Assembly: GCF_024320785.1 (NCBI RefSeq)
Contig: NZ_JANDBC010000001.1
Location: forward strand, 1,804,001 to 1,868,000
Reading direction: 5' to 3'
Source of the DNA: Gracilimonas sediminicola
GTDB lineage: Bacteria > Bacteroidota > Rhodothermia > Balneolales > Balneolaceae
DNA length: 64,000 nucleotides
The translations under genes and the position numbers were made by a program. The stretch's first letter is position 1, and each line of letters begins with the position of its first letter. This document shows, piece after piece, positions 11,293 through 13,159 of the stretch. The notes below the pieces were generated by a model. It did not search any database and was not told where the DNA came from. It saw only the letters and a list, made by a program, of their open reading frames with translations.

Positions 11293-11446
11293 GCTGGATA
11301 ATTGATTTGGAGCTTTGGATTAATCATACACAAAAGATAACCATTTTGATAATGGGGAATGACTGCCATTCTGTAGAAAAAACGGGCAAACACATTGCAT
11401 GAGTGTTGAAGAATTTACTATTTGCTCACTTTTAACATGCAATTAT

Positions 11447-11464
11447 TTACTGCTTTAGCAGTGA
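11447..11464. promoter_or_regulatory. hip operator-like palindrome 1
   Basis: TTACTGCTTTAGCAGTGA: an almost complete palindrome (ACTGC-TTTA-GCAGT core) that matches the other sites in this gap. HTH antitoxins such as HipB usually bind several such sites upstream of their own operon; binding here is inferred. Confidence 0.55.
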
Positions 11465-11497
11465 TAAAGTCTTTTTTAAGGGATTGTTCAGGGCAAA

Positions 11498-11515
11498 TTG
11501 CTGTTCAAGTTGTAA
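11498..11515. promoter_or_regulatory. hip operator-like palindrome 2 (degenerate)
   Basis: TTGCTGTTCAAGTTGTAA matches site 3 at 14 of 18 positions and starts exactly 20 bases before it, so the two would lie on nearly the same face of the helix. Confidence 0.45.
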
Positions 11516-11517
11516 AA

Positions 11518-11535
11518 TTACTGTTTAAGCGGTAA
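11518..11535. promoter_or_regulatory. hip operator-like palindrome 3
   Basis: TTACTGTTTAAGCGGTAA, the best representative of the repeated motif: TTACYG/CRGTAA half-sites around a TTTAA centre. Confidence 0.55.
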
Positions 11536-11588
11536 TTATTTTTATTTTGCATTGTTTTTAGGATGTTCGAGTTGTATAATAAGATTAA

Positions 11589-11606
11589 TAACTGCTATAA
11601 CGGTAA
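11589..11606. promoter_or_regulatory. hip operator-like palindrome 4
   Basis: TAACTGCTATAACGGTAA, 13 of 18 positions matching site 3, ends only 11 bases before the hipB ATG. A repressor bound here would cover the ribosome-binding region or transcription start. Confidence 0.5.
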
Positions 11607-11617
11607 ATAAAATTATT

Positions 11618-11854
11618 ATGAATTATTTTGGAAAACTTATTCGCTGTCATAGAAAACAGAGTAATTTAACACAAGTACAATTAGCTGATTTAGCCGGTGT
11701 AGGTAAGACGGTAGTATTCGATATCGAGCATGGCAAAGAAACAGTTCAATTTGAGAGCTTTCAAAAAGTATGCAGTGTACTCAATATTGATATAAAATTA
11801 GAGAGCCCGTTGATGGATTACTGTTTGAAGGAGGTATCAAATGAGAAAGGCTAA
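11618..11854 (+). CDS. hipB: HipB-like XRE/HTH antitoxin and autorepressor
   Basis: A 78-residue DNA-binding protein. The helix-turn-helix is TQVQLADLAGVGKTVVFDIE (about residues 18-38), the Cro/C1-type layout of HipB. ATG at 11618 is chosen because the family begins right before the first helix (MNYFGKLIRCHRK); an earlier in-frame ATG would add an odd 22-residue hydrophobic stretch overlapping operator 4. It overlaps hipS by 14 bases. As in known hip operons it should dimerise, bind the upstream palindromes, and contribute to neutralising the kinase. Confidence 0.88.
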   Translation: MNYFGKLIRCHRKQSNLTQVQLADLAGVGKTVVFDIEHGKETVQFESFQKVCSVLNIDIKLESPLMDYCLKEVSNEKG

Positions 11855-12155
11855 GGTTTATATGCATAATGAAGAAGCCGGTTGGCTAATTGAGGATGAG
11901 CTAAACCAAAAATATCGATTCATTTACGATGATTCATACAAAGGGAAAGCTATATCAGTAACGATGCCTGTTGAAGACAAAGAGTTTAAATTTGAACACT
12001 TCCCGCCTTTTTTTGAGGGACTGCTTCCGGAAGGCGTAAACCTGGAGGCTCTTTTAAGAACTAAAAAAATTGACAGAAACGATCGGTTTGCACAATTGAT
12101 GGCGGTAGGTGAGGATACCGTTGGGGCAGTAACTGTTAAGGAGATTAAAGCATGA
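11841..12155 (+). CDS. hipS: HipS-like antitoxin, equivalent of the HipA N-terminal subdomain
   Basis: A 104-residue protein corresponding to the N-terminal (N-subdomain 1) part of HipA: MRKAKVYMHNEEAGWLIEDE, then FFEGLLPEGVNLEALLR and DRFAQLMAVGEDTVGAVTV, the usual PFFxNLLPEG...GxD-x-xGAV signature. In ordinary HipBA this segment is fused to the kinase. In HipBST systems it is a separate protein and serves as the antitoxin of the HipT kinase; that role is transferred by homology. Its stop overlaps hipT by 4 bases. Confidence 0.85.
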   Translation: MRKAKVYMHNEEAGWLIEDELNQKYRFIYDDSYKGKAISVTMPVEDKEFKFEHFPPFFEGLLPEGVNLEALLRTKKIDRNDRFAQLMAVGEDTVGAVTVKEIKA

Positions 12156-13078
12156 CCCGATGTCCGATAACCTACGAGAGAATCGCCTCGGGACGGTACA
12201 GTAAAACCGGTCTTAATAAGCTCAACCCTGCACTAAAGGAGTTAAAACCTTTGCCTTTTGACCGAAAGGAGCAGGTTCAGGAAGCCCAAAAGAGAATGAC
12301 GAAAATGTCGATAGCCGGAGTACAGCCCAAACTAAGTGCACAATTAAGTATTAAGAACGAATCGTTTAAAATTGTGGACAGGCAGGGAAGTTACATACTG
12401 AAGCCTCAGTTATCAGACTATGATGAAGTTCCTGAAAATGAAGATGTAACGATGAAAATGGCTAAGGCAGCAGGTATTGAAGTGCCATTACATGGATTGA
12501 TCTATGCGAAAGACCAGTCGCTGCTTTACTTCATTAAGCGGTTCGACAGATTCGGGCAAGCAGGTAAAGTTCATGTTGAAGATTTTGCTCAGGTAGCAGG
12601 AATGAGCCGGGAAACAAAATACAATTACTCGATGGAGAAAGTAATTTCACTAATTGATAAGTACTGTACTTTTCCCATGGTGGAGAAAATGAAGCTATTT
12701 CGAAGGACCTTGTTTTGTTTCTTATGCGGAAACGAAGACATGCACTTAAAAAACTTCTCCTTTATATACAGAGATCAAAAAACAGAGCTTTCTCCGGCTT
12801 ATGACCTTTTAAATACAACGATCGTAATGTCAAACCCCGTGGAAGAGATGGCACTTCCACTGAAGGGGAAGAAGTCCAACTTCACTCAGGCTATTTTTTT
12901 CAAGTATTTTGGTGAAGAGCGAATGGAGTTGAATAATAAAGTGCTCACAACTATTAAAAAAGACCTTTGGGATGCACGCCAGGAATGGGAAAGGCTAATT
13001 AAAATCAGTTTTTTAAGCGACGAAAAAAAAGAAGCCTACTTTGAAATCCTGGAACAACGGTTTCAGGCTCTAAACTGA
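12152..13078 (+). CDS. hipT: HipT-like serine/threonine kinase toxin
   Basis: A 308-residue HipA-like kinase core without the HipA N-terminal subdomain, which is hipS here. The Gly-rich loop MSIAGVQPKLSAQ (S53) carries the regulatory serine position; K84 (ILKP) should bind ATP; GNEDMHLKN gives the catalytic D196 and N201; SPAYDLLNT gives metal-binding D218. All key residues are intact. Characterised E. coli HipT phosphorylates tryptophanyl-tRNA synthetase and stalls translation; the target here is unknown. In that HipT the loop motif has two serines (SIS); here it is SIA, leaving one. Confidence 0.88.
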   Translation: MTRCPITYERIASGRYSKTGLNKLNPALKELKPLPFDRKEQVQEAQKRMTKMSIAGVQPKLSAQLSIKNESFKIVDRQGSYILKPQLSDYDEVPENEDVTMKMAKAAGIEVPLHGLIYAKDQSLLYFIKRFDRFGQAGKVHVEDFAQVAGMSRETKYNYSMEKVISLIDKYCTFPMVEKMKLFRRTLFCFLCGNEDMHLKNFSFIYRDQKTELSPAYDLLNTTIVMSNPVEEMALPLKGKKSNFTQAIFFKYFGEERMELNNKVLTTIKKDLWDARQEWERLIKISFLSDEKKEAYFEILEQRFQALN

Positions 13079-13159
13079 CTTACCAAAATTTACTTGTGCA
13101 CTCGCTTTTGAATACCTACCATTAACCAACTTTTAAAAAGGAATAATTACCTCGTAAGT

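What the first reader, a model, noticed from the sequence alone, without database searches (positions are those of the whole stretch)
11618..13078. Tripartite HipBST-type toxin-antitoxin operon with a one-serine SIA loop
Three overlapping genes encode an HTH repressor, a separate HipA N-terminal subdomain and a kinase core lacking that subdomain. This is the layout of HipBST, where HipS, not HipB, is the main antitoxin. The kinase has all catalytic residues (K84, D196, N201, D218). Its Gly-rich loop reads SIA; characterised E. coli HipT has SIS, with two phosphorylated serines. Only S53 is left for autophosphorylation, so self-control may differ. A HipBST-type system in this lineage seems little studied.
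Basis: partly seen in the sequence, partly recalled or inferred. Interest (0 to 1): 0.75.

Follow-up and report, generated by a model that had tools for sequence, protein, structure and literature searches.

The report
Ordinary HipBST toxin-antitoxin with spaced operators
A three-gene bacterial toxin-antitoxin operon that belongs to a type already worked out in Legionella; its one-serine kinase loop is normal for that type, but the evenly spaced repressor sites in front of it turn out to be conserved in distant bacteria.

Summary
The three genes are real and intact: hipB 11618-11854, hipS 11841-12155, hipT 12152-13078, in a Balneolaceae genome. This is a HipBST module of the Legionella-type subclade (HipBST-Lp), not the E. 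coli type: the best solved-structure match of each protein is the L. pneumophila subunit.

The headline anomaly dissolves with the right comparator. Published HipT-Lp also has one loop serine (SVQ). Of 60 distinct Lp-type HipTs read, none has the two-serine loop; 49 read SIQ, and 5, all from Balneolaceae, read SIA. TrpS is a poor first target guess, since TrpS and GltX did not rescue HipT-Lp toxicity.

Published Legionella operators have 53-bp gaps, the same pitch. I find a three-site chain in 51 of 56 usable loci; 102 of 104 distances are 69-73 bp, although spacer sequence is at chance level between distant members. That fixed pitch is the interesting part.

Verdict: a good member of a known kind, with a conserved regulatory geometry worth testing.

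The parts
11447..11464 (.). operator O3 (TTACTGCTTTAGCAGTGA), putative HipB site
   Evidence: 14 of 18 bases self-complementary
11518..11535 (.). operator O2 (TTACTGTTTAAGCGGTAA), 71 bp after O3
   Evidence: 14 of 18 bases self-complementary
11589..11606 (.). operator O1 (TAACTGCTATAACGGTAA), 71 bp after O2 and 11 nt before hipB
   Evidence: 12 of 18 bases self-complementary
11618..11854 (+). hipB, 78-aa Cro/C1-type HTH protein, putative autorepressor
   Evidence: HTH_3 37.7 bits; TIGR03070 67.1 bits, under cut-off; best PDB match HipB(Lp) 8ezt, E 5e-17
11841..12155 (+). hipS, 104 aa, free HipA N-subdomain-1, predicted antitoxin
   Evidence: Couple_hipA 85.8 bits; TIGR03071 93.6 bits; best PDB match HipS(Lp), E 6.1e-30
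12152..13078 (+). hipT, 308 aa, HipA-like Ser/Thr kinase core without N-subdomain-1, predicted toxin; loop S53-I54-A55
   Evidence: HipA_C 170.7 bits; colinear with HipT(Lp) 8ezr, E 1.8e-108
11359..13084 (.). stretch with no counterpart in same-genus genome G005, where 31 bp take its place; holds the three operators and hipBST

Best explanation
It is an intact Legionella-type HipBST toxin-antitoxin module. [quoted passage not shown] HipS, the detached HipA N-subdomain-1, docks on the kinase near its glycine-rich loop, forces the loop out and so blocks ATP binding. HipB does not neutralise HipT by itself; it binds three operators upstream of the operon and, with HipT and HipS attached, autoregulates transcription. 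Shown here by sequence: gene layout, conserved catalytic and HipS-contact residues, and three operators at a fixed pitch of about 71 bp shared with distant loci. The SIA loop is a Balneolaceae-level change of SIQ at a position that varies within the subclade (Q, A, G or P). The loop serine is present in each of the 57 HipTs read that have no other lesion.
For: Best PDB match of each protein is the L. pneumophila HipBST subunit; HipT matches HipT-Lp at E 1.8e-108 and the E. coli O127 HipT entries (7ab3-7ab5) at 2.7e-32 at best. Residues whose mutation abolished or weakened HipS binding in HipT-Lp (D133, R134, E144, K157, K201; PMC9325769, passages read) are D132, R133, E143, K156 and K200 here, identical in 59 of the 59 sequences that reach them; R154 (R153 here) in 58 of 59. 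HipS Trp65 of E. coli is V66 here, I65 in Lp (PMC10653801, section 11). Consensus-free lag scan: 26 of 38 rows (duplicates included) have their best repeat at 70-73 bp out of lags 25-129. 102 of 104 operator distances are 69-73 bp. No operator site in 18 control loci with HipT under 45% identity. A strict paired-operator pattern in 395 genomes hit 13 places in 8 genomes, each upstream of a hipBST-Lp locus; reversed control 0.
Against: No toxicity, neutralisation, DNA-binding or kinase data exist for this operon. The cellular target is unknown even in Legionella. E. coli HipT S59A, which also reads SIA, is non-toxic (PMC10627512, passages read). The two Legionella papers disagree on R154: binding much reduced in one, neutralisation intact in the other (PMC10653801, section 10). 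Only the published length and spacing of the Legionella operators were compared, not their letters, and O1 lies 11 nt before hipB here against 24 nt reported there. HipB misses the NCBIfam cut-off. The operator consensus was chosen after seeing the sequences it was then counted in.
Confidence: 0.85

Rival explanations
1. An E. coli O127-type HipBST: HipT phosphorylates TrpS, HipS wedges a Trp into the active site, and loop phosphorylation gates neutralisation.
For: Same gene order; homologous subunits.
Against: Two-serine loop absent here and found in 0 of 60 subclade members. The HipS Trp position is Val. HipT is far closer to HipT-Lp. The three-operator array is present here, whereas PMC10653801 (discussion, passages read) reports the Legionella operator motifs absent upstream of E. 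coli hipBST. TrpS did not rescue HipT-Lp toxicity (same paper, section 13).
Confidence: 0.06
2. The SIA loop makes HipT non-toxic, as S59A does in E. coli HipT, so the operon is a tamed or regulatory kinase rather than a toxin.
For: E. coli HipT SIA is non-toxic although it still autophosphorylates (PMC10627512, passages read). SIA is found in 5 of the 9 Balneolaceae genomes with a match, of 92 searched.
Against: Position 55 is Q, A, G or P in the 60 proteins, so serine there is not required. The published partners of that residue in HipT-Lp, D145 and K201, are kept in SIA members. HipT-Lp stays toxic with S54A or S54D (PMC10653801, section 12). hipS and the operators are retained with SIA HipT.
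Confidence: 0.12
3. A decayed split hipA, i.e. a pseudogene lineage.
For: Copies with lesions exist in the subclade: L005, L058 and L161 carry catalytic changes or a stop.
Against: Here the three ORFs are intact with all four catalytic residues; hipT w is 0.076 against G007; the same split layout is found in distant loci.
Confidence: 0.02

Closest known systems
HipBST of Legionella pneumophila (Lpg2368-2370; PMC9325769, PMC10653801; PDB 8ezr, 8ezs, 8ezt, 7vkb)
   Same: Gene order; best PDB match of each protein; single loop serine; no HipS Trp; conserved HipS-contact residues; three 18-nt operators with 53-bp gaps.
   Different: Loop SIA instead of SVQ; host Balneolaceae; O1 11 nt before hipB instead of 24; operator letters not compared; no experimental data here.
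HipBST of E. coli O127:H6 (PMC10627512, PMC8262856; PDB 7ab3-7ab5)
   Same: Tripartite layout; kinase core and detached N-subdomain-1.
   Different: Two-serine SIS loop, HipS Trp65, TrpS target; Legionella operator motifs reported absent there; HipT match only E 2.7e-32.
HipBA of E. coli K-12
   Same: HipA_C kinase and HTH HipB.
   Different: Two genes; HipA carries the N-subdomain-1; HipB is the antitoxin; other operators (from passages of PMC8262856 and PMC10653801).

Membership tests
HipBST, Legionella-type subclade | hipB-hipS-hipT order with overlapping or abutting genes | tested here: met
   overlaps of 14 and 4 nt
HipBST, Legionella-type subclade | HipS is a free HipA N-subdomain-1; HipT lacks it and keeps the kinase motifs | tested here: met
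   PF13657 in HipS, PF07804 in HipT, catalytic residues present
HipBST, Legionella-type subclade | closest characterised proteins are the Lp subunits | tested here: met
   best PDB match of each protein; no tree with Legionella rows was built
HipBST, Legionella-type subclade | three evenly spaced 18-nt operators with 53-bp gaps | tested here: met
   11447, 11518, 11589; geometry compared with PMC10653801 section 9, operator letters not compared
HipBST, Legionella-type subclade | HipT toxic; HipS, not HipB, neutralises | not testable with these tools
   only residue conservation seen
HipBST, E. coli O127 type | two phosphorylatable residues in the loop (SIS and similar) | tested here: not met
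   SIA here; 0 of 60 subclade members read S-x-S
HipBST, E. coli O127 type | HipS Trp65 wedge | tested here: not met
   V66 here
HipBST, E. coli O127 type | TrpS as target | not testable with these tools
   no target assay; the nearest relative does not behave so (PMC10653801 section 13)
Split hipA pseudogene | loss of catalytic residues or reading frame | tested here: not met
   K84, D196, N201, D218 kept; ORFs intact; hipT w 0.076

The most novel reading that the evidence does not exclude
The fixed pitch of about 71 bp between three HipB sites is kept from Balneolaceae and Flavobacterium to contigs labelled Ignavibacteriales and Acidobacteriota, and it matches the published Legionella gaps, while the DNA between the sites has randomised. 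This would mean that HipBST complexes on neighbouring operators contact each other and build one defined higher-order complex (a loop or wrap) that reads the HipS:HipT ratio: a regulatory architecture conserved across phyla and unlike the known hipBA operators.
Probability: 0.35. Interest if true: 0.6.

Novelty: new member of a known kind. Interest (0 to 1): 0.4.

Why it matters
It corrects a comparator: within Legionella-type HipBST a single loop serine is normal, and Balneolaceae SIA HipT is a natural counterpart of an E. coli HipT mutant reported non-toxic, so testing it would say whether loop position 3 matters outside the E. coli branch. The operator array gives a compact, testable regulatory signature for the subclade: in 395 genomes the strict paired pattern hit only upstream of hipBST-Lp loci, though it found just 8 of the 17 genomes with such a locus. 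Its fixed pitch asks a direct structural question about how tripartite antitoxin complexes sit on DNA.

Tried and rejected
Rejected: E. coli-type membership (loop, HipS Trp, distance); pseudogene. No sign of carriage by phages: no match in the phage records at E 1e-10, and no relative confirmed in viral contigs by a scan that finds close relatives only. Plasmids: 6 records match at E 1e-40, each under 60% identity.

Led little: the consensus promoter scan was no better than shuffles (6 found against a shuffled mean of 4.7, sd 1.9). The genome-wide operator scan with one mismatch gave 16 places against 23 for the reversed control: the three operators, one inside hipS, and 12 elsewhere, one of them an exact match at C3:208318 whose neighbours I did not look at; so no sign of a wider regulon, but it was not excluded. 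In one search the slice chosen for G007 was mostly hipT, not upstream DNA, so that row was ignored. dS is saturated in most comparisons beyond G007. In some searches L141 was counted although its hipB lies at a contig edge; I leave it out of the 56. L090 and L091 are cut duplicates of the window and G007 and are left out of the 60. No structure prediction was run: HipT aligns to 8ezr over its whole length, and the tool takes single chains only.

Full report
What is there. The window carries hipB (11618-11854), hipS (11841-12155) and hipT (12152-13078) on the + strand, overlapping by 14 and 4 nt. Pfam and NCBIfam place them as an HTH protein near couple_hipB, a free HipA N-terminal domain and a HipA_C kinase core. 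The genome is in Balneolaceae: a locus of G240, which the tool calls same family, is 100% identical over 3,912 bp to a contig titled Rhodohalobacter sulfatireducens (the family of that genus is recalled, and supported by contigs titled Balneolaceae). PF07804 matches once in the genome.

Which kind. The best solved-structure match of HipT, HipS and HipB is in each case the L. pneumophila HipBST subunit (E 1.8e-108, 6.1e-30 and 5e-17). HipT aligns with HipT-Lp end to end with one single-residue gap. The E. coli O127 entries (7ab3-7ab5) match at 2.7e-32 at best. E. coli HipS Trp65 is Val66 here; Lp has Ile there, and PMC10653801 section 11 (read) shows that Lp neutralisation does not use that Trp. 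The same paper (section 6, read) states that Lp-type homologs are widespread in the FCB superphylum.

The one-serine loop. I collected Lp-type HipTs (at least 49% identity) from the genome search samples (57 relatives; 395 phylum genomes; 92 family genomes; 348 genomes of the genus of G239; these samples overlap) and from genome contigs. The genus of G239 is Flavobacterium by a 100% identical locus. After removing identical proteins and two cut duplicates (L090, L091), 60 distinct proteins remain: SIQ 49, SIA 5, and SVQ, SVG, SIG, ALP, YIQ, AIQ one each. None has S-x-S. Three further truncated matches had no locus and were not read. The five SIA proteins are Balneolaceae (window, G007, G394, G240, G444). 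In the tree (made before G444 was added, so with four SIA rows) they lie in one branch (91/91) that also holds the long-branched ALP protein of G022. The tree needs two changes for the SIA label, with a single origin not ruled out, so SIA is most simply a local change of SIQ.

Loop serine and catalysis. Three of the 60 lack Ser53, and each has another lesion: L005 (D196E, N201D), L058 (N201F) and L161 (in-frame TGA, 67-residue product). The other 57 keep Ser53 and all four catalytic residues. The link was noticed on the first two cases; L161 came later, and its stop could be a sequencing error. It suggests that Ser53 is kept as long as the kinase works, although HipT-Lp S54A and S54D remain toxic (PMC10653801, section 12, read). 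The residues whose change abolished or weakened HipS binding in HipT-Lp (PMC9325769, passages read) are identical in 59 of the 59 sequences that reach them for D132, R133, E143, K156 and K200, and in 58 of 59 for R153. PMC10653801 (section 10, read) found that R154A of HipT-Lp is still neutralised.

Three operators. The repeat finder shows repeats at 11447, 11518 and 11589, each 71 bp from the next. A consensus-free lag scan over 38 rows (four of them duplicates) put the best repeat at 70-73 bp in 26, out of lags 25-129; in the window itself the 71-bp lag came second to the 62-bp repeat. PMC10653801 section 9 (read) describes three 18-nt operators with 53-bp gaps upstream of Legionella hipBST, i.e. 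the same pitch, bound by HipB in EMSA; its discussion (passages read) says that the motifs are absent upstream of E. coli hipBST. O1 lies 24 nt before hipB there and 11 nt here. With the consensus TTACYGYTWWARCRGTAA at 14 of 18 or better, 34 loci (four duplicates dropped) hold 95 sites, and 27 of 34 hold at least three; the window and G007 have a fourth, weaker match between O3 and O2 that is off the 71-bp grid. Dinucleotide shuffles average 0.1 site per locus and never reach three (680 shuffles). 18 control loci with HipT under 45% identity hold none; the HipB matches that anchor three of these (L021-L023) are weak. The consensus was chosen, so the site counts are not an independent test, but spacing is not built into it.

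Spacing. In the larger set (L141 removed for lack of upstream DNA) 51 of 56 loci have a three-site chain, two have two sites and three have none (L005, L045, L046). The chain rule allowed 60-80 bp. Of 104 distances 57 are exactly 71 and 102 lie in 69-73; the other two are 61 (L041). Two of the three exceptions look like eroded arrays: L005 keeps two sites 137 bp apart, and L045 has a diverged triple at 72 bp. Mononucleotide shuffles gave any two-site chain in 2 of 2,850 (L141 included). Three distinct HipTs had no hipB match in the DNA held (L063, L066, L161). Many loci are Flavobacterium, so they are not all independent. Between loci with HipT under 60% identical, equal-length spacers are 36% identical, against 34-35% for shuffled spacers; operators at the same index are 74% identical, part of which comes from choosing them by consensus. 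So length rather than sequence is conserved between the sites. Three-site arrays also occur on contigs titled Ignavibacteriales and Acidobacteriota (L065, L064); these are MAG contigs and could be misbinned.

Specificity. A strict pair pattern (no mismatch, 51-55 bp gap) in 395 phylum genomes gives 13 places in 8 genomes, every one upstream of a hipBST-Lp locus; the reversed pattern gives none. Only 8 of the 17 HipT-positive genomes carry the strict pattern; the window does not, since O3 and O1 each differ from it by one base. In the own genome, one-mismatch matches (16) are fewer than the control (23); one exact match lies elsewhere, at C3:208318, not followed up.

Genomic setting. 10 of 10 genus genomes have the ppx-like gene and the M14-peptidase-like gene that flank hipBST in the window (gene names are recalled, not from a family search); in G002 and G009 they lie on different contigs. 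Two of the ten, the window genome and G007, have Lp-type hipBST, at the same place, with 96% identical DNA downstream; G004 and G008 have only distant HipT-like matches (40% or less). In G005 the flanks align up to 11358 and from 13085, with 31 bp between, so 11359-13084 (operators plus hipBST) is absent as one block. Gain in the window-G007 lineage or loss in G005 fits; this was not resolved.

Mechanism. Shown: layout, residues, operators. Inferred from Lp: HipS ejects the glycine-rich loop, HipB represses, and HipT and HipS join HipB on DNA. Target unknown: TrpS, GltX and PheST did not rescue HipT-Lp (PMC10653801, section 13, read). The SIA loop equals the E. coli S59A mutant, reported non-toxic (PMC10627512, passages read), so toxicity of this HipT must be tested rather than assumed.

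What is not in print, as far as searched. Four paper searches were made. The word operator occurs 19 times in PMC10653801 and one to three times in the other HipBST papers listed, which I did not read for it. [quoted passage not shown] In what I read I saw no report of the array outside Legionella; supplements and figures were not available. PMC10653801: abstract, outline, sections 6 and 9-13, and passages. PMC9325769, PMC10627512 and PMC8262856: passages only.

Noticed in passing
L045 and L046 (G177, G221): Two related HipTs with SVG or SIG loops pair with a HipS that has Trp at the E. coli Trp65 position, and lack the consensus operators; L045 shows a diverged triple at 72-bp pitch.
   Followed up: partly
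L005 (G022), L058 (Flavobacterium yafengii), L161 (G635): HipT copies without the loop serine also carry catalytic changes or a premature stop; L005 keeps two operator-like sites 137 bp apart, L058 keeps three.
   Followed up: partly
window 11293-13159 and L101-L105: The ppx-M14 gap holds other cargo in relatives: a transposase-like ORF in G004, a 170-aa lipoprotein-like ORF in G006, G008 and G001, a 7-kb stretch in G003 (names from recall).
   Followed up: no
plasmid record NZ_LR134418.1 (listing only): A Legionella HipT relative is annotated as a Dot/Icm effector, though the abstract of PMC10653801 reports no translocation of HipT-Lp above control.
   Followed up: no
window 11502-11518 and 11564-11580: A second repeat, TGTTC[AG]AGTTGTA[AT]AAT, 62 bp apart, lies just before O2 and O1; possibly paired promoter elements.
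   Followed up: no
G000:C3:208318-208335 (outside the window): An exact match to the operator pattern away from hipBST; single site, neighbours not examined.
   Followed up: no
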